Positions 39,601 to 56,738 of a stretch of DNA of 61,031 bases are shown in pieces. The position numbers and the translations under genes are program-made. This DNA comes from an uncultured Arenicella sp. (GTDB lineage: Bacteria > Pseudomonadota > Gammaproteobacteria > Arenicellales > Arenicellaceae): assembly GCA_938045295.1 (NCBI GenBank), contig CALINO010000031.1, positions 1 to 61,031 on the forward strand, given 5' to 3'. The notes beneath the pieces are model-generated. The model saw only the letters and a list, made by a program, of their open reading frames with translations. It was not told the DNA's origin and did no database searches. How positions within the stretch are numbered: the first letter of the stretch is position 1; each line of letters starts with the position of its first letter.

Positions 39601-39792
39601 ACCTGTAAATTCACACACCAAACAAATTCACACTAAATAAACCGAAAAAACAATTAATCGACTTTTAACTACTTTTAAATTGCATTTTTAAGCAAATAAA
39701 TACAAAATAACACATCGACAAAAATGACCTTAACAAAACAGCAGGTCAAGTAATGGACGATAACTAATAAATATAAAAATTTGGAGGAAACA

Positions 39793-40859: not shown

Positions 40860-41666
40860 TTATGAAGCCAATGAAACCTCTGTGGCACTTAATGCCAACG
40901 CAATACCAATAAATTGCTCGGCATCCAGAGAAGCGCCGCCCACTAATGCGCCGTCAATATCCGCTTCGCCAAACAAACTGGCCGCATTGCTGGCGTTCAC
41001 ACTACCGCCATATAGAATAGACACTCGCTCAGCAACTGCAGAGTCATACTCCGCAATCACGGCACGAATCTCAGCATGAATGCGCTGCGCGTAATCCGGC
41101 GTTGCCACCTTGCCAGTTCCTATGGCCCACACAGGCTCATAGGCAATGACTATGTTTTCAAACGCATGAATGCCAACCTTGGCCACCACACTGACAATTT
41201 GTTCACGCACCACGCTTTCAGAAGTACCTGCTGTGTACTGCTCAAGTGTTTCACCTACGCACAACACAGCGGTAATATTGTGTTCTAACGCCGCCGCCAC
41301 TTTATCAGCCACTTCAAGATCATCTTCAGCGTTCAAAGTACGCCGTTCAGAGTGCCCGACGAGCACATAGTCACAGCCAGTGTCTTTTAGCATGGTAGCC
41401 GAAAGCTCACCGGTGTAAGCCCCTTGTGAGTAACGTGATACGTTTTGAGCGCCAACACCGGCAGCCAATGATTGTTGATCCAACTCAACTTGCACATCTT
41501 GAATATAGACGCTCGGGGGGCACACCACTAAGCCCACATTGTCGAAATTAAGGTTGCGACTCACAGACTGTTGTTGCAAACCGCTGATAAGCGCCCTATT
41601 GCCCGCCTTATCGCCGTTCATCTTCCAGTTGCCCATAACATATTGCTTTCGTTTCATGCTACTCAT
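40860..41666 (-). CDS. tpiA: Triosephosphate isomerase
   Basis: Interconverts dihydroxyacetone phosphate and glyceraldehyde 3-phosphate. The full set of motifs is present: GNWKMNG, GHSERR with catalytic His105, AYEPVWAIGTG with the catalytic Glu, and YGGSVN. At 268 residues it is slightly longer than usual because of Gln- and Ser-rich inserts near residue 30. The ATG at 41666 has AGAGG 8 bases upstream. It ends the gap-pyk-tpiA operon, next to genes that produce DHAP. Confidence 0.95.
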   Translation of the reverse strand: MSSMKRKQYVMGNWKMNGDKAGNRALISGLQQQSVSRNLNFDNVGLVVCPPSVYIQDVQVELDQQSLAAGVGAQNVSRYSQGAYTGELSATMLKDTGCDYVLVGHSERRTLNAEDDLEVADKVAAALEHNITAVLCVGETLEQYTAGTSESVVREQIVSVVAKVGIHAFENIVIAYEPVWAIGTGKVATPDYAQRIHAEIRAVIAEYDSAVAERVSILYGGSVNASNAASLFGEADIDGALVGGASLDAEQFIGIALALSATEVSLAS

Positions 41667-41684
41667 CACTGCGCCTCTAATAAA

Positions 41685-43121
41685 TTATTGCACTTGCTCT
41701 ACTTTCAGAATATTGGTGCCACCCTGCATATTATTAACGGCACCTTTAGTCAAAATCACCAAATCTCCGCTTTGGATATAACCGGCTTCCTTTAAATGCG
41801 TTATGGCTTGGCTGCTGACTTCTTGGTCTGTTTTACTGCCTGGATCAAATAATGCGGTCTGAACACCGCGATACAATGCCACTCGTGTTTGCGTGCGCTC
41901 ATGACGAGAAAAAGCAAAGATCGGCAAGCGCGAACTAATGCGCGACATTTGCAACGGCGTATTGCCAGACTCACTTAAACAAATTACCGCACGAACTCCG
42001 TCAAGCTGATTAGCTGCGTACATGGCTGACAACGCAATGGTTTCATCGATATTTTCAAACGAGCCGTACATGCCATGATCTGATAAATGAGCCGTTGGGT
42101 GCTCTTCAGCCCCCAAAATAATACGGTCCATTGCTTCAACAGACTCAACCGGAAAATCCCCGGCGGCACTTTCAGCCGACAACATCACAGCGTCGGTTCC
42201 ATCAAGCACGGCGTTGGCCACATCAAACACTTCCGCTCGTGTTGGTAACGGCGAATTAATCATCGATTCCATCATCTGCGTGGCGGTGATTGAACAGCGT
42301 TTTAATTCACGACAACGCTTAATTAAGTGTTTTTGCACGGCAATTAATTTAGCATCACCGATCTCCACGCCTAAGTCTCCGCGTGCCACCATGACCGCTT
42401 CTGAGGCAAGAATAATGCCATCCAAGCGTTGCATGTCAGCCACTGCTTCGGCGCGCTCAACCTTAGCCACAAGGCCAGCATCACTGCCGGCTTCTCTTAA
42501 TAGCGTTCTGGCTTGCTCCATATCCTGCGCATCGCGAGGAAATGACACCGCCAAATAATCCACATTTATGGCGGCCGCCGTAATAATGTCTCTATGGTCT
42601 TTTTCAGTCAGCGCGGGAGCCGATAAACCACCGCCCTCACGATTAAGCCCTTTGTTGTTTGAGAGCTTGCCGCCCACTTCAACCACGCAATGAATCTTAG
42701 CGTTTTCAATGCGGTTAATTTTAAAAACCACGCGGCCGTCATCTAATAATAAACGGTCGCCTTCATCGCAATCTTCTGGCAACGCTTTATAGTCTATGCC
42801 AACGCTGTGCTGATCGCCGGCCAGCTCATCCATTTGCGCATCCAAAATAAATTCATCGCCTACGGCCAAATTAATGGCGCCTTGTTGAAACTTTGCAATG
42901 CGAATTTTAGGCCCTTGCAAGTCCCCCAGAATGGCAATGTGAAGGCCATGTTTAGCCGCCAGCGTGCGAACCTTTTCGGCTCGGTCGATATGATCCTGAG
43001 GAACGCCGTGTGAGAAGTTCAATCGAACCATATTAGCGCCAGCCAACAATAAGCGTTCTAACGTGGCAGGGTCATCGGTGGCTGGCCCTAAGGTACATAC
43101 AATTTTGGTGCGTCTATACAT
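41685..43121 (-). CDS. pyk: Pyruvate kinase
   Basis: Final ATP-forming step of glycolysis. It begins [14 protein letters not shown], has the active-site signature [18 protein letters not shown] with MVARGDLG, and [31 protein letters not shown]. The length of 478 is typical of the bacterial PykA/PykF group. It is 18 bases upstream of tpiA and 27 bases downstream of gap on the same strand. Confidence 0.95.
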
Positions 43122-43148
43122 AATTAAAAAGCGTATTTTATGGCGTTC

Positions 43149-44180
43149 TTAGCCTGTTTGCTGCAATGAAATAGACGCCGCTTGCATGAGTGCAACCGTA
43201 TTATCTAACATGCGGTTTGAGAAGCCCCATTCATTGTCATACCAAGACATAACCTTCACCCAACGACCTTGGGTTTTAGTTTGCGTGGCATCAAAATTAC
43301 TTGAATAGGCATTGTGATTAAAATCAATGGAGACTAACGGCTCTTCGTTGTACGACAAAACATGCCCGATCTCGCCGTCACACGCCGCCTTAACAATGGC
43401 GTTGACTTCTTCTTCGGTTGTTTCTCGTTTAGCCAAAAAGTTCAAATCCACTACGGAAACATTCACCGTGGGCACACGAACAGCCATGCCATCAAGCTTG
43501 CCCACCAGTTCAGGCAACACCAAACCAACCGCACTTGCTGCGCCAGTTTTGGTGGGAATCATAGACATGGTTGCCGAGCGCGCTCTGTACATATCTGAGT
43601 GATACACGTCACTCAAATTTTGGTCATTAGTGTAAGCATGGATCGTGGTCATCGAGCCTTGCTCAATGCCAATCGCGTCGTTTAATACTTTTGCAACAGG
43701 GGCTAAGCAATTGGTTGTGCATGATGCGTTCGACACAACTTGATCTGAGGCATTAAATACGTGTTCATTAACACCGTATACCACGGTGGCGTCCACCCCT
43801 TTTGCTGGCGCTGAAATAATCACTTTCTTTGCACCCGCCTCAATGTGCGCCATGGCGCTATCTTTGCTGGTGAAAATGCCGGTGCATTCGTAAACCACAT
43901 CAACGCCTAATTCACCCCAAGGTAATTTCGCCGGGTCTCGCTCGGAAAACATACGAATTTCATCGGCGTCTACCGTCATCAAGCCGGCGGTCTCGGTCAC
44001 AGAAAATGGAAATCGCCCATGCACCGTGTCATAACGTGTCAAATGAGCATTTAACTTTTCATCACCCAAATCATTGATCGCAACAATTTGAATTTCATGC
44101 TGCCGGTTAGATTCATACAACGCTTTCAGAACATTACGCCCAATGCGTCCATAACCATTAATTGCGACTCGTATTGTCAT
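43149..44180 (-). CDS. gap: Type I glyceraldehyde-3-phosphate dehydrogenase
   Basis: NAD(P)-dependent oxidation of glyceraldehyde 3-phosphate. It has the [13 protein letters not shown] Rossmann motif, the catalytic Cys154 in [10 protein letters not shown] and [12 protein letters not shown]. The sequence is of the GapB/Gap2-like bacterial group. A role as erythrose-4-phosphate dehydrogenase is less likely given the pyk and tpiA neighbours. It is the first gene of gap-pyk-tpiA. A terminator stands between it and otnC upstream. Confidence 0.92.
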
Positions 44181-44262: not shown

Positions 44263-44901
44263 TTAACCTTTAGGGGGGAAGCGCCGTTGCAATTCTGCTA
44301 CCTGCTCATCTGTAAGAGTTTTGTATTTCTCTTTGTGCACCATCAGAAATAATTGTGCGGTTGCTTCCAGTTCTTCGGTGGCATCAACGGCGGCATTTAG
44401 GTCATTGCCCGCCACCACTGGCCCATGATGCGCCAACAACATGGCATGATGCTCGCTAGCACACCGTCTAACGGCTTCAGCTAATTCCGGATCGCCCGGC
44501 GCATAGTATGGTAGTAACGGCAAACGGCCGACGCGCATTGCGTAATACGCGGTCAACATGGGCAACACATTATCAGGGTCAATTTCATCCAAAACTGAAA
44601 CCGCCACTGAGTGTGTTGAATGCAAGTGAACAACGGCGCCACTGTTTTTCCGTTGCTGATACATTGCCAAGTGCAATTTGTCTTCCTTAGTTGGCTTATC
44701 TCCACTGAGATAACGGCCAGCAAAATCCAGCTTGGTTAATTTAGCTGGATCTAAACGCCCGAGGCAAGAACCGGTGGGGGTCATTAAAAAGCCATCATCC
44801 ACTCGAACACTAATATTACCGGTACCACCGTGGGTCAGCCCTCGGTCATACATTGATTGGCCAAGAAGAGATATTTGTTCGCGCTGCTTATTCTCATTCA
44901 T
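44263..44901 (-). CDS. otnC: 3-oxo-tetronate 4-phosphate decarboxylase, class II aldolase family
   Basis: Cleaves 3-oxo-tetronate 4-phosphate to DHAP and CO2. It has the class II aldolase/adducin fold with GGTGNISVRV, the zinc ligands His92 and His94 in VVHLHSTHS, and His158/His159 in LLAHHGPVVAG. The length of 212 matches OtnC. Assignment to OtnC rather than fuculose-phosphate aldolase rests mainly on the neighbouring OtnK-type kinase gene 38 bases upstream. Product DHAP can enter the adjacent glycolytic genes. Confidence 0.88.
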   Translation of the reverse strand: MNENKQREQISLLGQSMYDRGLTHGGTGNISVRVDDGFLMTPTGSCLGRLDPAKLTKLDFAGRYLSGDKPTKEDKLHLAMYQQRKNSGAVVHLHSTHSVAVSVLDEIDPDNVLPMLTAYYAMRVGRLPLLPYYAPGDPELAEAVRRCASEHHAMLLAHHGPVVAGNDLNAAVDATEELEATAQLFLMVHKEKYKTLTDEQVAELQRRFPPKG

Positions 44902-46259: not shown

Positions 46260-47351
46260 CTAAATGGCTTTAGCAACCGCTTCACCGTAAACGGCTTGCG
46301 CCACGGCTTCACCAAATGCTTTACATCCGGTTGAACCACCTAAGTCTGAGGTACGCTTGGTTGGATCTTCTAGAACAGCATCAACCGCGCCAATCATGGC
46401 CGCACCCGCTTCCACTAAGGCTGGCTTGTTTTTGTTCTCGCCCATCCACTCTAACAACATGGCTACTGACAAGATCATAGAAACAGGGTTTGCAATGTCT
46501 TTACCGGCAATATCAGGCGCTGAACCGTGTTGAGCTTGAGCACAACAGTTGGTATCGCTGGCCATCATTGAACCGGCCAAGCCTAAGCTACCCGACAATT
46601 CACTTGCCAAGTCACTGATAATGTCGCCATAAAAGTTAGTGGCCACTAGCACGTCAAAACGCTCAGGGCTTCTCACCAAGTGAGCGGCCGCTGCGTCTAC
46701 TAACAAATCGTCAACCTGCACTTCAGGAAACTCTTTTGCAACGTTATACACACACTCCAAAAACAAGCCATCAGTCATGTGAAAGCTGTTTGATTTGTGA
46801 ATGGCGGTTACTTTTTTGTCACGCTTCATCGCCAACTCAAAAGCACGTCGAGCAATACGATCACTGCAATGGCGAGTAATTTTACGCGTAGACAAAGCCA
46901 TGTCTGGGCTAGGCATTACTTCGCCCCAGCCTTTAGTCATATTACGATCAGGGTAAAAGCCTTCCGTTGCTTCACGCATAATAACCAAATCCATGGTCTT
47001 GCCTTCTCTCATGCTTGATGGCAAAAATGGACGAGTACGAGCAGGTCTTACATTGGCGTATAAGTCTAAGCCTATACGAAAACCCGCCGACACATTACGC
47101 CCGCCTTCTTCTGGCGTTGGGTAATCTGCATGAGACTGCGTACCAAGAATAACACCGTCGTATTCTTTCGCATTTTCCAGCACTTCTTGGCGCAATGTGG
47201 TTCCGTGTTTTTTTAAACTTTCAAAGCCAACATCGTCATAGTCAAAGCTCAAATCCAATTTAAACTTTTCATTTGCTGCACGCAGAACAAGCATTGAAGA
47301 CTCAACAATTTCAGGGCCAATTCCATCGCAAGGAAGAACTAGAATTCTCAT
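46260..47351 (-). CDS. Isocitrate/isopropylmalate-family dehydrogenase
   Basis: NAD(P)-dependent beta-hydroxyacid oxidoreductase of 363 residues. It has PCDGIGPEIV (7-16), MREATEGFYPDRNM, a catalytic Lys/Tyr region, and metal-binding NFYGDIISDLASELSG. The sequence resembles tartrate/D-malate dehydrogenases more than LeuB or Icd. Placed first in an otnK-otnC operon, it probably oxidises a four-carbon acid sugar at C3 to give 3-oxo-tetronate. The AGGAG 8 bases before the ATG at 47351 fixes the start; a TTG at 47357 is unlikely. Confidence 0.82.
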   Translation of the reverse strand: MRILVLPCDGIGPEIVESSMLVLRAANEKFKLDLSFDYDDVGFESLKKHGTTLRQEVLENAKEYDGVILGTQSHADYPTPEEGGRNVSAGFRIGLDLYANVRPARTRPFLPSSMREGKTMDLVIMREATEGFYPDRNMTKGWGEVMPSPDMALSTRKITRHCSDRIARRAFELAMKRDKKVTAIHKSNSFHMTDGLFLECVYNVAKEFPEVQVDDLLVDAAAAHLVRSPERFDVLVATNFYGDIISDLASELSGSLGLAGSMMASDTNCCAQAQHGSAPDIAGKDIANPVSMILSVAMLLEWMGENKNKPALVEAGAAMIGAVDAVLEDPTKRTSDLGGSTGCKAFGEAVAQAVYGEAVAKAI

Positions 47352-47401
47352 ATACAAACTCCTAAAAAATAATTATTCAAGTAGTAATTTTCATTGAGGC
47401 A

Positions 47402-47430
47402 ATATTACATTTTTAAATTTGAAAATGCAA
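47402..47430 (-). promoter_or_regulatory. Promoter with overlapping operator, site A
   Basis: Minus strand -35 TTGCAT (47425-47430), 17-base spacer and -10 TAATAT (47402-47407). The palindrome TTACATTTT-N8-AAAATGCAA (47405-47430) covers both hexamers, so a bound regulator would block polymerase. The predicted leader is about 44 nt before the dehydrogenase ATG. Confidence 0.65.
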
Positions 47431-47470
47431 TATTTTTATTATTAAGAGTATTCCACTCTATTTTAGAGAC

Positions 47471-48424
47471 TTACAAAAACCCCATATGGCTCAATACCAG
47501 CAACCCTAGAGTCACGCTAAACATAGAAAAAAACGTACTAAAACCAATGATTCTTGCGGCCAAAGCACTGTTTCCGTGCATGGCCTCAACCATGGTAAAA
47601 CTAGAAACCGCCGTAGGGGTTGCCATCATTAAAAACACAATCACCACCTCTTTTGTGGAAAACCCAAGCCAATAAGCCCCAAGCGTTAACAACAGCGGCA
47701 TAGCCACTAATTTCAACGCCACTGAAGACAACAACACCATTGAAGAGCTTGATAAGCCCTTAAACGTTAACGCCCCGCCAATGCAAATCAACGCCAAGGG
47801 CAATGATATACGGCCAATATAGTCGCCCGAGCGCTCAAAGACATGATGAATAGGCACTTGAAAAAAGTTGCATGCAAACCCTAAGAAAATACCAATAATC
47901 AGAGGGTTTTTAACAAAACCCAGCAACGTTTTACTTAACACTTTGGCATTATTCTGTAAGCTTTTATTCAACGTATACACAGACAAGCAGTTGTATAACA
48001 CGGTCAAACTGGCCATAAGCACGGAAACAACCCCCAACACTGCAGCGCCAAAAACCTCCAACGCAAACGCCAAACCAACAATGCCTAAGTTACCTCTGAA
48101 ACCGGCTTGAATGAATACACCGAAATCACGCTGGTTTTCAACCACCACTGGCGCCAAATAAGACAGAACCACAAAGAACAGCAATGTTCCAAACAAGCAA
48201 TAAGCAACCAAGGCCGGATTAAAGGCCTGTTGAAAATCAGCGTCATAAACCCCTTGAAACAACACAATAGGCAGGCCAAACTTAAACACCAGTTGAGACG
48301 CAGACTTGATAAACGAATCGTCAATCACGCCAAAGCGCTTTAAACAATAACCAAAGAAAACCAACAAGAAAATCGGCCCGGTGATAGACGTTGCAAAGCC
48401 TAAATCAGCAGAAAAAACCGGCAT
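47471..48424 (-). CDS. AEC-family (auxin efflux carrier-like) transporter
   Basis: A membrane protein of 317 residues with about ten hydrophobic helices: PIFLLVFFGYCLKRFGVID, then KFGLPIVLFQGVYD, and the inner GFRGNLGIVGLA and LPLALICIGGAL. AEC members carry dicarboxylates, malonate and other organic anions. The divergent operator site B and the otn context suggest it moves a four-carbon acid sugar or a by-product. Direction is not deducible from sequence. Confidence 0.85.
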   Translation of the reverse strand: MPVFSADLGFATSITGPIFLLVFFGYCLKRFGVIDDSFIKSASQLVFKFGLPIVLFQGVYDADFQQAFNPALVAYCLFGTLLFFVVLSYLAPVVVENQRDFGVFIQAGFRGNLGIVGLAFALEVFGAAVLGVVSVLMASLTVLYNCLSVYTLNKSLQNNAKVLSKTLLGFVKNPLIIGIFLGFACNFFQVPIHHVFERSGDYIGRISLPLALICIGGALTFKGLSSSSMVLLSSVALKLVAMPLLLTLGAYWLGFSTKEVVIVFLMMATPTAVSSFTMVEAMHGNSALAARIIGFSTFFSMFSVTLGLLVLSHMGFL

Positions 48425-48466
48425 TTGCAGACCTCGTGAAGGAGTAAATTAATCGAACGAGGATTA

Positions 48467-48492
48467 TTGCATTTTTTATAATTAAAATGTAA
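48467..48492. promoter_or_regulatory. Operator site B between divergent AEC and racemase genes
   Basis: TTGCATTTT-N8-AAAATGTAA, the same 9-8-9 architecture as site A. The plus-strand spacer contains TATAAT (48477-48482), a possible -10 for the racemase gene. A shorter inverted repeat TAAATGC/GCATTTA-like lies just downstream near 48495-48514. Confidence 0.65.
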
Positions 48493-48601
48493 TGTAAATG
48501 CCGAACCGCATTTTTATGCTGTGTCATTAAGTCTCAGTATAAAAGCCGATACGCAATCACATCTCAACTTTCGATAAGACCATTAAAAATTTGCCAAAAC
48601 C

Positions 48602-49255
48602 ATGACCAAAAGAATCAGTTTAATACACGTTACACCAGTGGCAATAAAACCCATTAACGATGCATTTTCAGCCTTATGGCCTGAAGCCACACTGAATAAT
48701 TTGCTTGATGATTCTATATCAATGGGCTTAAGTCAGGGCGCCAGCAAAGAGAGCTTGAAACGGCAATTTTTAGATTTGGCAAGATACGCGCAAAACAACG
48801 GCGCTGACGCCATTTTATTCACCTGCTCGGCTTTTGGAGAAATTTTAGATGAATGCAAAAATGAACTCGACATACCAATTTTGAAACCCAATGAGGCAAT
48901 GGTAAACCGAGCAGCCCAAAAGGACGGAAAAATTGCACTACTGGCCACCTTTGAGCCCGCTATTGAGTCGATTAAAGCAGAATTAATGGACGCTGCAAAT
49001 GAACACGGAACCAACATTGAAGTGCAAGCATTCGCTGCCCCAAAAGCATTGAGCGTGCTCAAAGAAAACAATGATTTGGAAACGCACGACGCTCTGATCG
49101 CCGACTTAGTGACTCAGGCCACCGATTGCGACATAATTTGCTTTTCTCAATTTTCAATGAGTTCGGCGTTACGTTTGTCGGAAAAAAACACCAGCAAACC
49201 CATACTGACCACACCAGAAAGTGCGGTTTTACAAATTAAAGCCCTACTTTCATAG
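48602..49255 (+). CDS. Aspartate/glutamate/hydantoin racemase-family protein
   Basis: A 217-residue protein of the Asp/Glu racemase superfamily. The first of the two catalytic cysteines is in LFTCSAFGEI (Cys78 region). The second position, in the DIICFSQFSMSS segment, has Cys then Ser-Gln-Phe-Ser and is not a plain CT motif, so it may be an isomerase or decarboxylase rather than a racemase. AMDase-type decarboxylases and maleate isomerases share this fold. It is divergent from the AEC gene, under the shared operator B. Confidence 0.75.
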   Translation: MTKRISLIHVTPVAIKPINDAFSALWPEATLNNLLDDSISMGLSQGASKESLKRQFLDLARYAQNNGADAILFTCSAFGEILDECKNELDIPILKPNEAMVNRAAQKDGKIALLATFEPAIESIKAELMDAANEHGTNIEVQAFAAPKALSVLKENNDLETHDALIADLVTQATDCDIICFSQFSMSSALRLSEKNTSKPILTTPESAVLQIKALLS

Positions 49256-49274
49256 AACGGGTGTACGACACAAT

Positions 49275-49305
49275 CTAAAAATGGCTCTAAAAAGAGCCAT
49301 TTTGC
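49275..49305. terminator. Terminator-like hairpin between racemase and GntR genes
   Basis: AAAATGGCTCT AAAA AGAGCCATTTT, a perfect 11-bp stem with T-rich sides, located between convergent stop codons. The T tracts are short on both strands, so termination is probable but may be partial. Confidence 0.6.
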
Positions 49306-49340
49306 ATTTACATACGGATTTACTAAACGAAACCGGCTAA

Positions 49341-50231
49341 TTAATCATTAAATTTCAGAATTGGCGACTTCATTGCGAAAGAGCCAGATAAGTGTTTTTT
49401 GATCAAGTGAGCGGCTTCTAGGTTATTGCCTTCTTTAACCAAATCTAAGATCTGCAAATGTTCCTTCGCTTGATTGTAAAACCGGGTGCGATCGATCATT
49501 GCCCGGTATTCAACCAAACGGCGCATTTTATTCACTTTCACAAGAATCATGCTGTAAAGTGCGTTGCCGGAAAGCGCCGTTAAATCTTCATGAAACTTAA
49601 CGCCCATTTTAATCAGCACGTCGGCGGGCAACCGCTCTATATCACCGCCTAACAAGGCGTGTTGCTCATAGGTGAGTGCATTAAGAACATCAAAGTCGTG
49701 ATGAAAACTCGGTTCTAGCAATGCCGCGGGCTCAATTAAGGCTCGCACCTTATATATTTGTTCTAATGTTTCTCTGGTTTTAGCCACTTCCAATAGCCGC
49801 CAGCCATAACCGGGTTTGGGCTCAGCCCACCCCACTCGAGCCGCAATATTCAGAATATCAATGACTTGAAACTTAGTTAAATCGTAACGCTTTTGTAAAA
49901 ACTGTTCCGTTACTTCTGACGGTATTTCGCCATTCAACCAGTCTTCAGAAAGGCGATAGTATTCTTCGGGCTCTTCTAATGAAAGAATTTCATCACTGCG
50001 CGCGTCATCTGTTTGAGGTGGCTCATTAACAAAAAAACCACGATTGCGTTCTTGGGTAAGATAACCTTCGCTTGCAAGCAGCACTAAAGCTTCTCTGGAA
50101 GGCGAACGTGAAACTTCATATTGATCTGCGATCTTTTGCACACCAAGGTGACTGCCTTTGGGCAATTCTCCGGTGTGAATTTTTTGCTTTAGCTGATCAG
50201 CAATCCTCTTTACAAGGCGACTCGACCCCAT
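49341..50231 (-). CDS. GntR-family regulator with two winged-helix domains and FCD domain
   Basis: A 296-residue regulator. Residues 1-70 are a canonical GntR wHTH (IADQYEVSRSPSREALVLLASEGYL). Residues 85-150 look like a second, degenerate wHTH (DWLNGEIPSEVTEQFLQKRYDLT and VGWAEPKPGYGWRLL). Residues 155-285 are FCD-like, ending in HLSGSF. The FCD domain usually binds an organic acid with a metal. It is the only regulator in the otn region and the best candidate for the TTGCATTTT palindromes. Confidence 0.85.
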   Translation of the reverse strand: MGSSRLVKRIADQLKQKIHTGELPKGSHLGVQKIADQYEVSRSPSREALVLLASEGYLTQERNRGFFVNEPPQTDDARSDEILSLEEPEEYYRLSEDWLNGEIPSEVTEQFLQKRYDLTKFQVIDILNIAARVGWAEPKPGYGWRLLEVAKTRETLEQIYKVRALIEPAALLEPSFHHDFDVLNALTYEQHALLGGDIERLPADVLIKMGVKFHEDLTALSGNALYSMILVKVNKMRRLVEYRAMIDRTRFYNQAKEHLQILDLVKEGNNLEAAHLIKKHLSGSFAMKSPILKFND

Positions 50232-50374
50232 TTGTGCTCCGCATTTTTTTTATCATAACAACTGGACAACCCGATTAATAATAGCCGTATTGTAACATAA
50301 GCCTCCAAAAAGAAGCTCCAGCCTATTCCTTTAGATTGCCGCTAAACCGCGGCTTTCCTTGACTTATATCTAAG

Positions 50375-50403
50375 AATTACCGCATTTCCCCTATACGGTA
50401 ATT
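50375..50403. repeat. Inverted repeat upstream of the GntR gene
   Basis: AATTACCG-N13-CGGTAATT, a perfect 8-bp inverted repeat located about 145 bases upstream of the GntR gene start. It differs from the TTGCATTTT motif, so it could serve another regulator. A GCCGC/GCGGC mini-hairpin is close by at 50337-50352. Confidence 0.4.
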
Positions 50404-50464
50404 AAAAACGCAAAGAAGTTGGCAATATGCACCGAGGCTTAAGTTGCATAAGCCAACTTCTTTG
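50404..50464 (-). terminator. Rho-independent terminator of the tctCBA operon
   Basis: Minus strand CAAAGAAGTTGGC/GCCAACTTCTTTG (13-bp perfect outer stem) encloses an inner TTATGCA/TGCATATT stem and is followed by CGTTTTTAATT. It starts 10 bases after the tctA stop codon. Confidence 0.85.
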
Positions 50465-50474
50465 ACGTTAAAGC

Positions 50475-52013
50475 TTATGCTGATGCACCAACGGCGGCAT
50501 TCAGCTTTCTATTTTTCAGCATTTTTTTAACGCGTAATAGAATTGTGAAGAAAATAACACTTAACAAAATAATCGTTAGAACCAATGATATTGGGCGCTC
50601 GATGAAAATCTTCATGCTGCCGTCGCCAATAATCAGTGACTGTAAGAATGTATTTTCAGCCATTGCGCCAAGCACGAGTGCCAATACAGTAGCCGCAGGA
50701 GAATAGCCGTAGCTCTTCATACCAAAGCCCAAAACACCGGTCAGAATTAACAACCATGTTTCAATCATGCTCGAGTGCAGTGCATAAGTACCCACCATAC
50801 ATAGCACCACAATCACAGGCACTACTAAACGGTACGGCACATCTAAGAACTTCACAAACAATGGAATGGCAAGAATACTGATCAACACCAACATCATGTT
50901 ACCAAGGTACATACTTGCAATCAGACCCCAAACAAAGTCAGGCTGATTCACAATCAATGTTGGCCCCGGCTGTAAGCCCCACATCATTAGTGCACCTAGC
51001 AATACCGCTGTAGCACCAGAACCAGGAATGCCCAATGAAATTAATGGAACCATGGCCCCTGCTGACGCCGCATTATTAGCGGTTTCAGGTGCAACCAAAC
51101 CTCGCATTTCTCCTTTACCAAATTTTTCTGGTTCTGAAGAAACTTTCTTTTCTACTGAGTACGCCAAAATTGAACCAATGGTTGCGCCTGAGCCCGGAAG
51201 AACACCGGCCACAAAACCAATGATTGAACCACGGAAAAATGTGAATTTTGATTCAACGTAGTCTTTCATGTCAGGCCAAAAGTCTTTGCTTCTGAATGAA
51301 ACCTTCAACTTTTCGCCCTGCTTCTTATGCAAGCCTATGTGAATACAGTGCAACAATTCACCAATACCAAATAAACCAATGGCCACCGGCACAAAGTAAA
51401 TACCACCGATAAGTTCTGGCGAACCAAACGTGAATCGCTGAGCACCACTGATTGCATCAACGCCCACGGTTGCAATTGCAAAACCGATCAACGCAGAAAT
51501 AATGCCTTTTAATAAATTGTCACCCATCATTGTGGTGAGTAACAACAAGCCCAGCATAACAATCAAAAAGTACTCTGACGGGCCAAATGAAGAAGCAAAT
51601 TTAGCCAATGCTGGAGTAAATGCACAAATCAAAATAACGCCAATGGTGCCCCCAACAAACGAAGCCAACGCCTGCATAACAAGAGCCGGGCCCGCTCGGC
51701 CATTTTGCGCCAACGGATACCCGTCCAAGGTTGAAGCAACCGTGGCGGACTCTCCGGGGGTATTAATTAATATGGACGTAATTGTTCCGCCATACATAGC
51801 CCCGTAATAAATTCCCGCCAATAATATGATGGCCGTTGTTGGCTCCAAGCCAAACGTCATGGGAATTAAAATAGCGATACCCGCAGCAGGGCCAAAACCC
51901 GGAAACAGGCCAACCACCATGCCCACAGACACACCAATCACGAGAAATAAAATATTGTAATACGACAAGGCCACTGAAAGCCCTTGCATTAAATTAGTTG
52001 AAATATCACCCAT
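50475..52013 (-). CDS. tctA: Tripartite tricarboxylate transporter, large permease TctA
   Basis: Large membrane component of a TTT uptake system, 512 residues with about 11-12 predicted helices. Family motifs include GLFPGFGPAAGIAILIP (near residue 37), GIYYGAMYGGTITSILINTPGE, and GLVAPETANNAASAGAMVPLISLGIPGS. It works with TctB and the periplasmic TctC, driven by an ion gradient. It is the third gene of tctC-tctB-tctA. The substrate is probably the four-carbon acid sugar or related acid of this cluster. Confidence 0.94.
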   Translation of the reverse strand: MGDISTNLMQGLSVALSYYNILFLVIGVSVGMVVGLFPGFGPAAGIAILIPMTFGLEPTTAIILLAGIYYGAMYGGTITSILINTPGESATVASTLDGYPLAQNGRAGPALVMQALASFVGGTIGVILICAFTPALAKFASSFGPSEYFLIVMLGLLLLTTMMGDNLLKGIISALIGFAIATVGVDAISGAQRFTFGSPELIGGIYFVPVAIGLFGIGELLHCIHIGLHKKQGEKLKVSFRSKDFWPDMKDYVESKFTFFRGSIIGFVAGVLPGSGATIGSILAYSVEKKVSSEPEKFGKGEMRGLVAPETANNAASAGAMVPLISLGIPGSGATAVLLGALMMWGLQPGPTLIVNQPDFVWGLIASMYLGNMMLVLISILAIPLFVKFLDVPYRLVVPVIVVLCMVGTYALHSSMIETWLLILTGVLGFGMKSYGYSPAATVLALVLGAMAENTFLQSLIIGDGSMKIFIERPISLVLTIILLSVIFFTILLRVKKMLKNRKLNAAVGASA

Positions 52014-52049
52014 TTTTTACACCTTTAACTTAAGTTTTCTCGCCACTTG

Positions 52050-52523
52050 CTAAATAATGCCGCTCAATATGCCTTTAGGCAGACCGGCACGAAGCAAAAT
52101 GTCAAACAACACATAAACACCTATAGGCAACATTAAGCTGTAGATAATATTGAACTTAAGTTTTCCTTTATTGAAATAGCTTAAGAACAAACCAACAAAC
52201 AACATCATGGAGATGATGCTTCCAAGAACGTTTAACGTTACAAGAAACAATGTAATCAGTGCTACCACTACTACCGTATCTTTAACATAACGCTCTTCGG
52301 CCTCATCACTTACAGTGTTTTCTTCAGAAAGAAGAGCCGCCCTTTCTTTGAAGCTCTTAACGGCATTTATCGTTGTGCATAGCAATAGCATTAAACCGAT
52401 AATTAATGGGAAATAACCTGGCCCTGGACGCCCAATAGAGTCAAACAAATCTAATGTTTGAACACCGTAAACGGTGTAAGCGAGAGAGCTCACCAGAAGC
52501 GCTAATGAAAAAAACAATTGCAT
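52050..52523 (-). CDS. tctB: Tripartite tricarboxylate transporter, small permease TctB
   Basis: A 157-residue protein with four hydrophobic segments and the TctB features LFDSIGRPGPGYFPLIIGLMLL and a C-terminal FDILLRAGLPKGIL. It lies between tctC and tctA. A strong hairpin is present in the spacer before it. Confidence 0.9.
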   Translation of the reverse strand: MQLFFSLALLVSSLAYTVYGVQTLDLFDSIGRPGPGYFPLIIGLMLLLCTTINAVKSFKERAALLSEENTVSDEAEERYVKDTVVVVALITLFLVTLNVLGSIISMMLFVGLFLSYFNKGKLKFNIIYSLMLPIGVYVLFDILLRAGLPKGILSGII

Positions 52524-52554
52524 TTTCTATACTCTGTTTTAATAATTACTGAAA

Positions 52555-52587
52555 GGCAGGCTTCAGGTTAATAACCCGAAGCCTGCC
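52555..52587 (-). promoter_or_regulatory. Intercistronic hairpin between tctC and tctB
   Basis: GGCAGGCTTC/GAAGCCTGCC (10-bp perfect stem extended by a GGTTA/TAACC inner part) with little T run after it. It likely protects the tctC transcript and lets the binding protein be made in excess over the membrane parts. Confidence 0.6.
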
Positions 52588-52602
52588 CAAGTATTGGTTG
52601 AA

Positions 52603-53571
52603 TTACTTAATTACGCCAATACGCTTCAAAACACCACGGAAATCCTTATCCGTTTTGTCTAAGTAAATAGCAAACTCGTCACCAAAGATGGTATTTCCTG
52701 ACAAGCCTTTAGTTTCTAAGTACTCATTCCACTCAGGTGTTTCAACTACTTTCTTCAGTGTATCAACCCACCAGTCACGAATCTCAGTAGGTACGTCACC
52801 AGGCAACACTACGCCACGAGGAAGTGCAAAATCAAAGTCATAACCTTGCTCTGCAAATGTAGGCACATCTGGGAACACGGTGCTGCGTTTGCGCTCTGAG
52901 TAACCTAGTGGAATGAAGTTACCAGCCGCAACTTGGCCAGACACTTCTGATGGATTCGCCACAATGGCATCCAAACTGCTAGAAGTAAGCGACGTGATTA
53001 AACCACCGTCATCTTGTGAAGGTACGTAAGTAAATTTAATACCCGCTGTTTCAGCAAACAAACCGGCTACTACGCGCTCTGGGCCAGCCGCACCCGTACC
53101 GCCAATTTTCAAATCATTAGTTTTTGCGTATTCCACTAAGTCCTTTAGTGTTTTGAACTTTGAGTCAGAACGCACAACTAAAAACATAGCATCTTGTGCT
53201 AATAGTGCAATTGGAGTGAAGTCTTTGTAAGTCCAGCCAGTATCAGAAACAATCGGCGTGCCTAAAAAGTTACCACTGGTTGAACTTGCGTGGTACGGGT
53301 TACCTTTTTGCTTAGCAACGTGGTTGAAACCAATCGCGCCACTACCACCAGCACGGTTTTCAACACGAATGTTTTGCCCACCGAAAAGGTCGTATTTTTT
53401 TAGAATTTTAACCAGGGTGCGTGACATCAAGTCATTACCGCCACCAGGGCCAAACGCAATGGTGTAATTCAACTGCTTGCTTGGGTAACCGCTTGCAGCC
53501 GTTCCCGTTAATGGCGTCATAGCCAGTGACGCAACAGCGCCAACTAATAGTGCTTTCTTCAATAATTTCAT
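52603..53571 (-). CDS. tctC: Tripartite tricarboxylate transporter substrate-binding protein (Bug family)
   Basis: Periplasmic binding protein of 322 residues with a signal peptide (residues 1-26, ending TGTAA). It has the Bug/TctC hallmarks: YTIAFGPGGGNDLMSRTL, VENRAGGSGAIGF, KIGGTGAAGPERVVAGLFAE and VVLPGDVPTEIRDWW. These proteins bind small carboxylates through two water-bridged loops. It is the first gene of its operon and has a hairpin in the spacer to the upstream porin gene. Confidence 0.92.
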   Translation of the reverse strand: MKLLKKALLVGAVASLAMTPLTGTAASGYPSKQLNYTIAFGPGGGNDLMSRTLVKILKKYDLFGGQNIRVENRAGGSGAIGFNHVAKQKGNPYHASSTSGNFLGTPIVSDTGWTYKDFTPIALLAQDAMFLVVRSDSKFKTLKDLVEYAKTNDLKIGGTGAAGPERVVAGLFAETAGIKFTYVPSQDDGGLITSLTSSSLDAIVANPSEVSGQVAAGNFIPLGYSERKRSTVFPDVPTFAEQGYDFDFALPRGVVLPGDVPTEIRDWWVDTLKKVVETPEWNEYLETKGLSGNTIFGDEFAIYLDKTDKDFRGVLKRIGVIK

Positions 53572-53726
53572 TTTTAAAGACTCCTGAATCCTCGAAATTT
53601 ACATTAATTATATTGTTTTATATTTTGATAAAGAAACTTCAGCCCAACCTTACGAACTCAAAATTTCATTTATATATCAATGTGGTGTACTGCTTTTAAA
53701 TAAAGAAAAAATGTGACGAACAACTA

Positions 53727-53766
53727 AAGCACTGACTTTGACAATAACACGCCAAAGCAGTGCCTT
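53727..53766 (-). promoter_or_regulatory. Hairpin between porin and tctC
   Basis: AAGCACTG-CTTTG paired with CAAAG-CAGTGCTT, one bulged base each side, just after the porin stop codon on the minus strand. It has only a weak T tract, so it could be a partial terminator that makes the porin more abundant than the transporter. Confidence 0.45.
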
Positions 53767-53777
53767 AAAAAGTGCAA

Positions 53778-54707
53778 TTAGAACTTAACTCTCATCCCTA
53801 ACACATAGGCCACGTCAGAGCCGTCTTCATCCGTGTTACTCAATTCGCCTAACAAGGTGATTTTGTCATGAATTTTATGGTTCAAGCTCATGTACCAAGA
53901 ATTAATATCAACACCGTCTTCTTCGGCCACTTCATAAGAAGCCACCAAATTAGTTTTAGGTGCAACACTAAACTCAGTAACTAAAGCCAACACTTCAAGG
54001 CTGTCATTCTCAGAATAATCTAAACCAACCTCAACCGGGCCAAAGCTAGTACCCACTCCAACACCAAACGTATTGATAGAGTCAGAACCAAACTCGGCAT
54101 CTAATTCTTGATAAGCAAAGCCAAAATCGAAACCGGCGTATTCCTTATACAAGAACGCATCGATCAACACTTTAGGTTTAACAAGATCACCCGCATCATC
54201 AAACTCAGCGTCTTCAATGTCGCGAGCAATACTGAATTCCCAGCCTGCGAATTGCGTTCTTAACTGAATTTGATTATCACTTTCTTCTGCGGTTTCTTCA
54301 AAAGTGTCTTCGAAACTTGATCCTTCCCAAGCTTTTTCATGACCAAAGTCTTTACTTGGTAAATCCGTTTGACCAATCAAAAAAGTAAAGTTGCCAAAAT
54401 CCATGCCAACATACACTTCTTCTGTTTCTTCTTTTTTAATGTCGTAATCAACCTGAGCAAACAACTTAGCGCCGTTATCAAGCGAATAAGTAATGCTATT
54501 CTTTATCTCGGCATCATCGTAGTCAACAAAAGAATCTTCATTTTCTCCGGCCTTGCGACGTAACTGAACTTGAAAGTCACCCTTCAATTTCCACTCAACG
54601 TCTCCTTTTTTGTAAAGAGTTGCCGCACTGGCACCCTCAAAAGCAACTAATAATGCAGCACCCAATATGCTTTTTTGTATTTTTGTCATTGTAAGCTTTT
54701 TACGCAT
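53778..54707 (-). CDS. Outer-membrane porin
   Basis: A 309-residue beta-barrel. The signal peptide spans residues 1-29 (cut near GASA-ATLY), and the protein ends in Phe (LGMRVKF), which BamA recognises. Alternating strands such as WKLKGDFQVQLRR, AKLFAQVDYDIKKEE and FTFLIGQTDL are typical of general gram-negative porins. It is rich in Asp and Glu. The start at 54707 has GGAGGTGG 7 bases upstream. The operator-like palindrome C lies about 85 bases further upstream. It probably admits the substrate of TctABC. Confidence 0.85.
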   Translation of the reverse strand: MRKKLTMTKIQKSILGAALLVAFEGASAATLYKKGDVEWKLKGDFQVQLRRKAGENEDSFVDYDDAEIKNSITYSLDNGAKLFAQVDYDIKKEETEEVYVGMDFGNFTFLIGQTDLPSKDFGHEKAWEGSSFEDTFEETAEESDNQIQLRTQFAGWEFSIARDIEDAEFDDAGDLVKPKVLIDAFLYKEYAGFDFGFAYQELDAEFGSDSINTFGVGVGTSFGPVEVGLDYSENDSLEVLALVTEFSVAPKTNLVASYEVAEEDGVDINSWYMSLNHKIHDKITLLGELSNTDEDGSDVAYVLGMRVKF

Positions 54708-54789
54708 ACAAACCACCTCCATAATTTTTATTGATAATAATTTTTATATATCCAGAAATACAATTAAAAATAAAAACTAATGATCTTTT

Positions 54790-54815
54790 TTGCATTTTTT
54801 GAACATAAAATGCAA
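54790..54815. promoter_or_regulatory. Operator site C upstream of the porin
   Basis: TTGCATTTT-N8-AAAATGCAA, a perfect 9-8-9 palindrome, extended by one more A/T pair each side. It is the best copy of the motif also seen at 47405-47430 and 48467-48492. Confidence 0.7.
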
Positions 54816-55030: not shown

Positions 55031-55389
55031 GGGGGCGACATGGCTTCGACATGGGTCGCGAAACCTTCGGTGCATGTAGAGCATTGCAGACTATCTCTTA
55101 AAACTAGCTGCAAAAGTTATAGTTGCAAACGACGATAACTACGCACTAGCAGCTTAAGCCTGCTAGGGTCTCGCCCGAGTTGTTCATGGCTTAGGATTAT
55201 GAGATCTCATCTCACATGAAATCGCGAGTTGCTTGTGTCGATTAAGTAGCCGTTAAAACGCAATTCGACCCGCCCCGAACCGAGTGCGTTTGTCCAGTTG
55301 CAAGGGGTTAAATTAAAGACAAACTAAACATGTAGAACCGTAGAGCGGAGGGCTTGTGGACGCGGGTTCGATCCCCGCCGCCTCCACCA
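55031..55389 (+). ncRNA. ssrA: Transfer-messenger RNA (tmRNA)
   Basis: Rescues stalled ribosomes and tags nascent proteins for proteolysis. The 359-nt RNA begins GGGGGCGACATGGCTTCGAC and ends in the tRNA-like GGTTCGATCC arm plus CCGCCTCCACCA, pairing to the 5' end through GGGGGCG/CGCCTCC. The tag reading frame (55125-55157) encodes ANDDNYALAA and a TAA stop, differing from the E. coli tag at one position (Asp for Glu). Its 3' end is the integration site of a mobile element. Confidence 0.97.
55375..55389 (+). repeat. attL core: 15-bp direct repeat at the tmRNA 3' end
   Basis: CCGCCGCCTCCACCA, the last 15 bases of ssrA, is repeated exactly at 60699-60713. The copies bound a 5.3-kb segment that begins with an integrase gene. 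This is the standard mark of site-specific integration into tmRNA. Confidence 0.85.
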
Positions 55390-55433: not shown

Positions 55434-55462
55434 ATTAAGCCACCTTAGGGTGGTTTTTTTGT
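55434..55462 (+). terminator. Terminator after the rebuilt ssrA
   Basis: Stem GCCACC/GGGTGG with a four-base loop followed by seven T, inside the element just after attL. It probably replaces the original ssrA terminator, which now lies beyond attR at 60714-60752. A longer bulged hairpin (AGGTTTAAC.../GTTAAGCCT, 55395-55429) precedes it. Confidence 0.75.
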
Positions 55463-55503
55463 GCCTATTAGCTTTATAACGTCCAGTGACATCCAGTCAA
55501 TAA

Positions 55504-55551
55504 GGGGGTATATTTGGGGGTATTTCCGTTCAATCATAGATTTATACCCCC
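55504..55551. repeat. Left arm-type integrase sites
   Basis: GGGGGTAT at 55504-55511 and again at 55516-55523 (12-bp period), plus an inverted ATACCCCC at 55544-55551 that ends just before the integrase ATG. The same pair recurs at the right end. They look like arm sites for the N-terminal integrase domain. Confidence 0.65.
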
Positions 55552-55553
55552 AA

Positions 55554-56738
55554 ATGCTGACCGATACCAAAATTAAAAGCCTTAAAGCAAGGAAGAAGGC
55601 CTACAAGCTCGCGGACGCGAACGGCCTTTATATCTATGTCACCCCAAAGGGTACAAAATACTGGCGGCAAAAATATCGGATTAACGGGCGCGAGAAACTA
55701 CTCTCGCACGGCGAGTACCCCTTTATTACGCTTGGAGAAGCCCGCAAATTACGCGATGAGGCAAGAACACTCATCAAGCAAGGCACTGACCCCGCTTTAG
55801 AAAAGAAGACTCTCAAAGCTGACAAGAGGAATAGCTTCGAGGCCATTGCGAGACAATGGCATGAAAAGCAAACACCTGACTGGTCACAGAACCACACACA
55901 GAAAGTAATTGTCTCGCTCGAAAAGGACATATTTCCACAAATCGGCTCAATCCCAATTAAGGAAGTTTCTACACCGATTCTTCTCGACGCGCTCCGTCAA
56001 ATAGAAAAGCGTGGCGCTTACGAACAAGCAAGGCGTGTTACTCAGCGGTGCGATTCCGTATTCAATTACGCAATAGCAGCAGGACTAATTGACTATAACC
56101 CCGCCCAAGGCATTCAGAACGCGCTCAAGAAACCAAAAAAGCAAAACTACAACACTATCGACCCGAAGGAGTTATCAGCCTTTGTAGATGCCCTGAAAAC
56201 AGTTAATGCTCATCCAATTGTTAAGCTCGCTACGGAAATGCTGATGCTAACTTTTGTTCGCACGGGCGAACTAATCGGCGCACGATGGGGCGAATTTGAT
56301 TTAGAAAATCGACTTTGGGAAATTCCCGCCGAGAGAATGAAAAAAAAGCGAACTCATCTAGTTCCACTCTCTGACCGAGTTATCGAAATTCTGATGGAGC
56401 TTGAGCAATACACTGGTCATCGCGAATGGGTGTTTGCAAGTCCATCCAAACCAAGAATGCCACTAAGCAATAATGCCATCCTTCAGACCCTCAGACGCAT
56501 GGGCTATGCTGGAAAAATGACTGGGCATGGTTTCCGGCATCTTGCCAGCACCATGCTGAATGAAATGGGCTACAACCCAGATGCGATTGAACGCCAACTC
56601 GCTCACAAGGATGACTCTACGCGAGGCGTATACAACAAAGCGGAACTCCTCAGCGAGCGTATAGTTTTGATGGATGACTGGTCAAAAATCGTAAGACAGA
56701 CATGTACTGAAGTTATCCCGATGAGGAGAAAAGCATGA
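55554..56738 (+). CDS. Tyrosine-type site-specific integrase (P4-like)
   Basis: A 394-residue integrase. The N-terminal arm-binding domain (DUF4102-like: MLTDTKIKSLKARKKAYKLAD, then GLYIYVTPKGTKYWRQKYRING) is followed by a core-binding domain and a catalytic domain. The catalytic domain has Arg in TFVRTGELIGARW, HGFRHLASTMLNE, and the C-terminal Tyr in DDSTRGVYNKAE. The ATG at 55554 is the start; an upstream GTG at 55461 would read through the arm sites. Integration into the tmRNA 3' end fits this clade. Confidence 0.93.
   Translation: MLTDTKIKSLKARKKAYKLADANGLYIYVTPKGTKYWRQKYRINGREKLLSHGEYPFITLGEARKLRDEARTLIKQGTDPALEKKTLKADKRNSFEAIARQWHEKQTPDWSQNHTQKVIVSLEKDIFPQIGSIPIKEVSTPILLDALRQIEKRGAYEQARRVTQRCDSVFNYAIAAGLIDYNPAQGIQNALKKPKKQNYNTIDPKELSAFVDALKTVNAHPIVKLATEMLMLTFVRTGELIGARWGEFDLENRLWEIPAERMKKKRTHLVPLSDRVIEILMELEQYTGHREWVFASPSKPRMPLSNNAILQTLRRMGYAGKMTGHGFRHLASTMLNEMGYNPDAIERQLAHKDDSTRGVYNKAELLSERIVLMDDWSKIVRQTCTEVIPMRRKA

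What the first reader, a model, noticed from the sequence alone, without database searches (positions are those of the whole stretch)
47402..54815. Shared palindrome TTGCATTTT-N8-AAAATGCAA defines a local regulon
Three copies with identical 9-8-9 geometry stand before the dehydrogenase-otnK-otnC operon (47405-47430), between the divergent AEC and racemase genes (48467-48492) and before the porin (54790-54815). Site A overlaps a sigma-70 promoter, and site B contains a TATAAT. Each copy matches the consensus at 17 or 18 of 18 arm positions. Other genes of the window carry only half sites.
Basis: partly seen in the sequence, partly recalled or inferred. Interest (0 to 1): 0.75.

Follow-up and report, generated by a model that had tools for sequence, protein, structure and literature searches.

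The report
Long operator for a two-headed GntR repressor
The shared palindrome is very probably the DNA address read by the neighbouring regulator, which appears to have two DNA-reading domains in a row instead of one, and it marks genes that seem to import and break down a four-carbon sugar acid in several groups of bacteria.

Summary
The three palindromes are real, at the stated coordinates, and not due to chance. In the 2.99-Mb genome they are the only sites with at most 1 mismatch of 18; none of the 108 other genomes searched in the order has one.

The motif travels with the GntR/FCD regulator at 49341-50231. It occurs with an 8-bp spacer in 24 of 35 loci around its relatives (39 sites; scrambled-arm controls mean 0.20). 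A variant in alphaproteobacteria, TTGGTTTTA-N8-TAAAACCAA, keeps the 9-8-9 frame, giving 32 of 35 loci with a site. Sites sit before Iso_dh-otnK-otnC, tctC, pyk, GntR, TPR and porin genes.

The regulator is unusual: AlphaFold and profile comparison show two GntR-type winged helices in tandem before the FCD domain, which may explain why its 26-bp operator differs from the short FadR-type site. Binding, which domain reads which bases, the ligand, and repression are inferred, not shown. The sigma-70 promoter claims are not supported.

The parts
47405..47430 (.). Site A, 26-bp palindrome (17/18), 53 bp before the likely ATG (47351) of the Iso_dh-otnK-otnC-gap-pyk-tpiA run
   Evidence: a site faces the start of the homologous gene in many loci
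48467..48492 (.). Site B, palindrome (17/18) between the divergent AEC transporter and racemase genes
54790..54815 (.). Site C, palindrome (18/18), 67 bp before the ORF start of the porin gene (porin, then tctCBA on the same strand)
   Evidence: two sites also precede a gene of another porin family in the congener G014
39680..39705 (.).
   Evidence: sites also lie 199 and 294 bp upstream of the homologous gene in G069
49341..50231 (-). GntR/FCD regulator, 296 aa, three-domain; proposed reader of sites A-D
   Evidence: Pfam GntR 63.1 bits, FCD 41.2 bits; AlphaFold mean pLDDT 86.5
50016..50231 (-). First winged helix (residues 1-72)
   Evidence: Pfam GntR 7-68; helices 5-19, 31-37, 42-54, strands 58-61, 65-68
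49776..49979 (-). Second winged helix (residues 85-152), not recognised by Pfam in this protein
   Evidence: hhalign with the first domain over 42-43 columns, probability 95-96.5%; same order of elements; predicted alone pLDDT 92.4, best match the winged helix of VanR/Atu1419, Z 10.7, 2.3 A over 68 residues
49386..49760 (-). FCD ligand-binding domain (residues 158-282)
   Evidence: Z 17.1 to PmiR over 129 residues, 1.8 A
46260..47357 (-). Iso_dh-family dehydrogenase, first gene of the run
   Evidence: PF00180 290.2 bits
44940..46220 (-). otnK, 3-oxo-tetronate kinase
   Evidence: NF043035 584.5 bits, cut-off 350
44263..44901 (-). otnC, 3-oxo-tetronate 4-phosphate decarboxylase
   Evidence: NF043034 310.8 bits, cut-off 250
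43149..44180 (-). GAPDH-family gene, likely in the same operon
   Evidence: TIGR01534 415.5 bits, cut-off 367.2; one of 5 Gp_dh_N matches in the genome
41685..43121 (-). pyruvate kinase, one of 2 in the genome
   Evidence: TIGR01064 525.2 bits, cut-off 306.4
40860..41669 (-). triose-phosphate isomerase, one of 2 in the genome
   Evidence: TIGR00419 207.8 bits, cut-off 130.6
47471..48424 (-). AEC-type transporter
   Evidence: PF03547 71.7 bits
48602..49255 (+). Asp/Glu racemase-family protein
   Evidence: PF01177 49.9 bits
50475..53571 (-). tctA, tctB, tctC tripartite tricarboxylate-type transporter
   Evidence: PF01970, PF07331, PF03401
53778..54722 (-). porin
   Evidence: PF13609 57.3 bits
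39794..40515 (+). TPR lipoprotein of unknown role (lipoprotein by eye)
   Evidence: PF07719/PF13424; sequence; 45% identical homologue beside the GntR gene in G069

Best explanation
The palindrome is the operator of the GntR/FCD protein encoded at 49341-50231. Each subunit carries two GntR-type winged helices in tandem and then an FCD domain; a dimer therefore offers four winged helices to a 26-bp site. I propose that they sit in two pairs on the two 9-bp arms, which would explain why the arms nearly always stand 8 bp apart. The protein most likely represses (as most FCD regulators do; recalled) the Iso_dh-otnK-otnC-gap-pyk-tpiA run, the AEC/racemase pair, the porin-tctCBA genes and a TPR lipoprotein gene, and lets go when a four-carbon sugar acid or an intermediate binds the FCD domain. 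Shown here: the sites, their placement, their co-conservation with this regulator, and the tandem fold (by prediction). Inferred: physical binding, which domain touches which bases, repression rather than activation, the operon limits, and the ligand.
For: Own genome: sites with 0-1 mismatch only in this cluster; none in 108 other genomes of the order, of which 2 carry the GntR at E<=1e-20. Loci L015-L049: 39 sites (31 distinct sequences) with at most 3 mismatches in 24 of 35 loci against a mean of 0.20 (largest 5) for 200 scrambled palindromic arms; spacers 4-7 and 9-12 give at most 2 sites each. Gamma loci 18 of 18; alpha loci carry TTGGTTTTA-N8-TAAAACCAA, 7 sites with at most 1 mismatch in 7 of 17 loci, all with spacer 8, scrambled mean 0.00. 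Of 57 sites of either type in 32 of 35 loci, 45 face the start of a homologue of a window gene within 400 bp (Iso_dh 26, pyk 11, GntR 9, tctC 8, racemase 2, TPR 2; a site can face two) and 0 lie inside one. The congener G014 has sites before tctC, Iso_dh and a Porin_O_P gene. Nine loci with other GntR-like proteins: 0 sites. Second winged helix; D2 plus FCD aligns as a whole canonical regulator (Lar 6ep3: model 87-292, 202 residues, Z 16.4, rmsd 5.3 A). The site does not fit the FadR-subfamily consensus with GT and AC 2-3 nt apart (PMC4494728, passages read), as a changed DNA-binding part would explain.
Against: No binding data. The test loci were chosen by the presence of the GntR, so co-occurrence is shown in one direction only; the order-wide scan and nine other loci are the negative side. 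Three of 35 loci (L032, L045, L049) have no site of either type. The spacer is not absolute: G014 has an arm pair with 1 mismatch and a 9-bp spacer before tctC (L015:6551). Two genomes (G756, G809) with an 82% identical Iso_dh next to a more distant tandem GntR have no match; only a looser TTG...CAA frame with 5 mismatches can be seen there by eye. In 19 more distant loci the signal is weak (2 sites with at most 3 mismatches, 8 with at most 4 against a mean of 0.58, largest 5), and spacer 7 gives 4 sites with at most 3 mismatches there. The window's GntR gene and its tctC have no site with at most 3 mismatches upstream. The alpha consensus was chosen after seeing the loci. Thirteen of the 35 loci are Pseudomonas and not independent.
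Confidence: 0.82

Rival explanations
1. Another regulator encoded elsewhere reads the palindrome, and the GntR gene is a bystander that travels with the catabolic genes.
For: No binding data; the window's GntR gene lacks a site of its own; the operator does not look like a FadR-type site.
Against: In alpha loci L034 and L039-L042 a site stands between GntR and Iso_dh and another directly after GntR; sites precede GntR in L044 and L046. In the 19 more distant loci 7 of 8 weak sites lie within 51-113 bp of an end of the GntR gene. The order-wide background of near matches is flat.
Confidence: 0.1
2. Two ordinary dimers bind the two outer TGCA boxes, about two turns (20 bp) apart, side by side; the second winged helix only serves as a hinge.
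For: TGCA is itself palindromic and its copies lie 20 bp apart in the gamma sites; the spacer is nearly fixed.
Against: The alpha arms TTGGTTTTA are not self-complementary, yet keep the 26-bp frame. The second winged helix keeps a conserved wing (positions 57 and 59 of 68, both glycine, invariant in 23), as a DNA reader would.
Confidence: 0.2
3. The repeats are a chance product of A+T-rich intergenic DNA or promoter elements.
For: The arms are A+T-rich; half sites are common (6 TTGCATTTT in the window).
Against: 0 sites with 0-1 mismatch in 9 Mb of matched random sequence; recurrence in loci of 60-68% G+C; no enrichment of promoter-like sites.
Confidence: 0.01

Closest known systems
FadR/FCD subfamily of GntR regulators (FadR, VanR/Atu1419, PmiR, Lar)
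   Same: GntR winged helix and FCD domain, both above Pfam cut-offs; D2+FCD superposes on whole members
   Different: An extra winged helix; the operator is 26 bp with arms 8 bp apart, not NyGTM-N0-1-KACNy with GT and AC 2-3 nt apart (PMC4494728, passages)
BusR of Streptococcus (GntR with RCK_C)
   Same: A GntR protein needing two boxes at a fixed long distance, a 'molecular ruler' (PMC8517857, passages)
   Different: BusR spans 22 bp between boxes by a tetrameric coiled coil and senses c-di-AMP; here the proposed means is a second winged helix, with FCD as sensor
NanR of E. coli (GntR/FCD)
   Same: FCD regulator with an atypical operator
   Different: NanR binds GGTATA direct repeats with three dimers (PMC8012715, passages); here one inverted repeat
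Bacterial L-threonate/D-erythronate pathway (LtnD or DenD, OtnI, OtnK, OtnC; enzyme names beyond OtnK/OtnC recalled)
   Same: otnK and otnC above the NCBIfam cut-offs
   Different: An Iso_dh-family dehydrogenase takes first place, no hit named as threonate dehydrogenase or OtnI appeared for the cluster, and gap-pyk-tpiA follow; a DeoR-family regulator (VdtR) serves in Brucella (PMC10580937, start of abstract in a search listing)

Membership tests
GntR family, FadR/FCD subfamily | N-terminal GntR winged helix | tested here: met
   PF00392 63.1 bits, cut-off 27; 29 of 29 aligned relatives match at E<=0.01
GntR family, FadR/FCD subfamily | C-terminal FCD domain | tested here: met
   PF07729 41.2 bits, cut-off 24.3; 29 of 29 aligned relatives; Z 17.1 to PmiR
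GntR family, FadR/FCD subfamily | Usual two-domain layout (one winged helix plus FCD) | tested here: not met
   Second winged helix at residues 85-152. This marks a variant; the layout is usual, not defining, and domain content still places it in the family
GntR family, FadR/FCD subfamily | Typical operator NyGTM-N0-1-KACNy (typical, not universal: NanR and BioR are named exceptions in PMC4494728) | tested here: not met
   Sites A-D have no central GT-N2/3-AC; arms lie 8 bp apart
GntR family, FadR/FCD subfamily | Carboxylate ligand bound by the FCD domain | not testable with these tools
   Three histidines (H214, H258, H280) are invariant in 29 sequences, which fits a metal site; that such residues hold the metal in FCD proteins is recalled
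BusR-like GntR regulators | RCK_C domain | tested here: not met
   Pfam finds GntR and FCD in this protein, nothing else at E<=0.001
Tetronate (OtnK/OtnC) catabolic pathway | 3-oxo-tetronate kinase and decarboxylase | tested here: met
Tetronate (OtnK/OtnC) catabolic pathway | LtnD/DenD-type dehydrogenase and OtnI isomerase in the cluster | tested here: inconclusive
   No family so named was listed for the ten cluster proteins and eight neighbours, but tables were cut at 25 rows and it was not checked that the libraries hold such models; the rest of the genome was not searched

The most novel reading that the evidence does not exclude
This GntR and its relatives form a separate subclass of FCD regulators in which the DNA-binding domain stands twice in tandem. 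A dimer reads an operator of about two and a half turns with four winged helices, the nearly fixed 8-bp gap between the arms acts as a ruler, and the second reader frees the family from the short FadR-type site. It controls a compact route from a sugar acid through DHAP to pyruvate with its own glycolytic enzymes.
Probability: 0.5. Interest if true: 0.65.

Novelty: new variant of a known kind. Interest (0 to 1): 0.5.

Why it matters
GntR regulators are a large bacterial family and many of their operators are predicted from a short shared consensus; a subclass with two winged helices and a 26-bp operator would be missed that way. Proteins of this length and layout matched in 24 of 397 sampled genomes of the phylum, the own genome included and at most six candidates per genome scored. 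The conserved operator gives a usable handle on a sugar-acid pathway with an unassigned first enzyme (Iso_dh) and dedicated lower-glycolysis genes, and makes the question of which winged helix reads which part of the arm testable, for example in Pseudomonas putida.

Tried and rejected
Position-weight matrix with per-locus background: drifted, because in G+C-rich loci it rewarded any A+T-rich stretch (321 hits in the last round); its matrix and counts are not used. It did point to the alpha-type site, later tested with fixed patterns and scrambled controls.

Unsupervised count of 9-bp inverted repeats by spacer over whole loci: no peak at 8; coding noise swamps it. It counts neither for nor against the motif.

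Sigma-70 promoter overlap: no enrichment; rejected as evidence.

Own-genome 3-mismatch sites: C63 lies inside a 482-aa frame, C77 just after a gene end; neither was taken as a regulon member. C6 lies over a 134-aa frame but also 113 bp before an Lrp/AsnC-family gene; it is not excluded as a weak target. Of the 22 other genomes with 2-mismatch sites, only G014, G066 and G071 were looked at; near the sites of G066 and G071 no window protein was found by tblastn. The 2-mismatch site of G069 on contig C10 was not looked at.

Class-wide search with the protein alone: 1 of 369 genomes, the own one, at E<=1e-30.

Pfam on the second winged helix alone: 1 of 5 sequences reached GntR at 8.6e-5, below the curated cut-off; Foldseek on it alone gave no match at E<=0.001, though many top rows are GntR proteins, and VIA-align's first rows are GntR proteins. 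In the whole-model alignment other rows pair the first winged helix and FCD with rmsd of 10-15 A. No solved structure covering both winged helices and FCD appeared among the 37 sequences or the rows shown; an unlisted family is not excluded.

Literature: two or tandem winged helices in GntR/FCD proteins, searches found 0 papers and one search listed 8, none by its title and abstract start describing such an FCD protein. Tetronate pathway and regulators; no listed row named a GntR regulator of it in its title or abstract start, but one search matched 777 papers of which 8 were listed. The library holds open-licence papers only. PMC4494728, PMC8012715 and PMC8517857 were read in passages; others were seen as listings with abstract starts only.

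A correlation of K120/R120 in the second winged helix with TTGC/TTGG arms was noticed by eye but rests on one clade and is not claimed. The class of each locus (gamma or alpha) was assigned from its organism name by recall.
Full report
OBSERVATION. The three palindromes are present at the stated coordinates with 1, 1 and 0 mismatches to TTGCATTTT-N8-AAAATGCAA. In the whole 2.99-Mb assembly (92 contigs, 99.4% complete) these are the only sites with 0-1 mismatch; one more has 2 mismatches (39680-39705, in the window) and three have 3. Of 109 genomes of the order, own included, no other has a site with 0-1 mismatch; 22 of the other 108 hold 23 sites with exactly 2. In 9 Mb of order-3 Markov sequence of the window's composition there were 0 sites with 0-1 mismatch, 3 with 2 and 17 with 3. 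So sites A-C cannot be chance; site D taken alone could be, and rests on its place and on the comparison below.

SETTING. Site A stands before a run Iso_dh-otnK-otnC followed at short gaps by GAPDH, pyruvate kinase and triose-phosphate isomerase genes. Site B lies between an AEC transporter and a racemase-family gene; site C precedes a porin followed on the same strand by tctC, tctB, tctA. Site D lies 88 bp before the ATG of a TPR lipoprotein gene. The genome has 2 TIM, 2 pyruvate kinase and 5 Gp_dh_N matches over the cut-offs, so the three glycolytic genes here are not the only copies. OtnC is named a 3-oxo-tetronate 4-phosphate decarboxylase; that its product is DHAP is recalled (an abstract listed says that bacteria turn L-threonate into DHAP), and it makes sense of a tpiA-gap-pyk tail. 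In Pseudomonas fulva (L025) a pyk-eno-tpiA-aldehyde dehydrogenase run lies on one side of an OprD porin gene, a chemotaxis receptor gene and the regulator, and an otnC-otnK-Iso_dh run with an AbrB-type membrane protein on the other; a site stands before pyk and another before Iso_dh.

COMPARISON. Within the order only two other genomes of 108 have the regulator at E<=1e-20: G014 (71% identity) and G069 (47%). G069 has a site in the divergent gap between Iso_dh and tctC and sites 199 and 294 bp before the homologue of the TPR gene, which there lies next to the GntR gene. A scan of genome contigs with the three proteins gave 44 loci, of which 35 (L015-L049) encode relatives of 32-71% identity over most of the protein; the nine others (L050-L058) match only in and near the first winged helix and served as controls. 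In the 35 loci there are 39 sites (31 distinct sequences) with at most 3 mismatches in 24 loci; 200 scrambled palindromic arms gave a mean of 0.20 and at most 5; other spacers from 4 to 12 gave 0-2; the nine controls gave 0. The 18 gamma loci all have a site. Several alpha loci (Bosea and others) use TTGGTTTTA-N8-TAAAACCAA: 7 sites with at most 1 mismatch in 7 of 17, spacer 8 only, scrambled mean 0.00. With both forms at up to 3 mismatches, 32 of 35 loci have a site (none in L032, L045, L049); of 57 sites 45 face the start of a homologue of a window gene within 400 bp and none lies inside one. Thirteen of the 35 loci are Pseudomonas and not independent.

LIMITS OF THE COMPARISON. The spacer is not absolute: before tctC of G014 lies an arm pair with 1 mismatch and 9 bp between. 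In 19 more distant loci found through 397 genomes of the phylum the signal fades: 2 sites with at most 3 mismatches, 8 with at most 4 (scrambled mean 0.58, largest 5); 7 of the 8 lie 51-113 bp from an end of the GntR gene, 2 before it and 5 after it, one of these 58 bp before Iso_dh; spacer 7 gives 4 with at most 3 mismatches. Two genomes (G756, G809) whose Iso_dh is 82% identical lack the motif; a TTG-N20-CAA frame is conserved between them upstream of Iso_dh, seen by eye and not tested. Operators evidently diverge with the regulator.

REGULATOR. The protein is 296 aa. Pfam sees GntR at 7-68 and FCD at 158-282 and nothing between. The stretch 85-152 is well conserved. Profile comparison of the two parts of the 29-sequence alignment gives 95.0 and 96.5% probability over 42-43 columns (E 3.6e-8 and 8.5e-10), and no similarity of either to the FCD part. 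AlphaFold (pLDDT 86.5) gives helix-helix-helix-strand-strand twice, at 5-68 and 89-146, joined by a low-confidence linker at 73-84; predicted alone the second has pLDDT 92.4 and superposes best on the winged helix of VanR/Atu1419 (Z 10.7, 2.3 A, 68 residues; Foldseek alone stays above E 0.001). In the whole model, Lar, VanR and others align over about 87-296, that is, second winged helix plus FCD form a canonical FCD regulator to which a further winged helix is added in front; other rows pair the first winged helix with FCD at rmsd 10-15 A. The profile search of PDB sequences matched 37 sequences, none over both winged helices plus FCD in its best stretch.

MECHANISM. A FadR-type site has its GT and AC 2-3 nt apart (PMC4494728, passages). 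Here the arms are 9 bp with 8 bp between, and the outer TTG/CAA recurs in most variants. Four winged helices on 26 bp is a natural fit: the first winged helix keeps the family's recognition helix (S41, R42, P44, A48 invariant in 29, R46 nearly so), so I place it on the TTG boxes and the second on the T-rich inner part. This assignment is inference. Repression with release by a sugar acid is the default for such proteins (recalled); nothing here excludes activation.

VERDICT. The finding is confirmed and its interpretation supported; the regulon is slightly larger than stated, and the proposed reader of the motif is an unusual form of a well-known family. As a catabolic regulon it is ordinary; the tandem architecture with its long operator is what deserves attention. 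No paper describing it was found in the searches, which cover open-licence papers only.

Noticed in passing
55031-55389 and 55461-56738 (+): A tmRNA gene directly followed by an integrase-family gene, which often marks a mobile island beside the tmRNA gene (recalled). The acid-sugar cluster lies on the other side of the tmRNA.
   Followed up: no
40860-44180 (-): Further copies of triose-phosphate isomerase, pyruvate kinase and GAPDH genes follow otnC in one run; in Pseudomonas fulva (L025) the analogous run is pyk-eno-tpiA-aldehyde dehydrogenase with its own site.
   Followed up: partly
46260-47357 (-): The Iso_dh-family enzyme scores below every NCBIfam cut-off listed, yet its homologues in the relative loci are 66-86% identical apart from L036 (39%, a fragment) and L048 (55%); its substrate is unassigned.
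   Followed up: no
39794-40515 (+): TPR lipoprotein, apparently a regulon member; it scores weakly with the SoxAX-binding protein model. Role unknown.
   Followed up: partly
L020:16215-17042, L022:18060-18902, L027:18415-19257: A second, about 35% identical GntR divergent to the racemase gene in three Pseudomonas loci; its operator was not studied.
   Followed up: no
L086:2649-2674 and the same region of L087: A conserved TTGTACTTT-N8-TAAAAACAA frame upstream of an 82% identical Iso_dh, perhaps a diverged operator.
   Followed up: no
L015:6551-6577: Arm pair with 1 mismatch and a 9-bp spacer before tctC, 92 bp before a spacer-8 site with 3 mismatches.
   Followed up: partly
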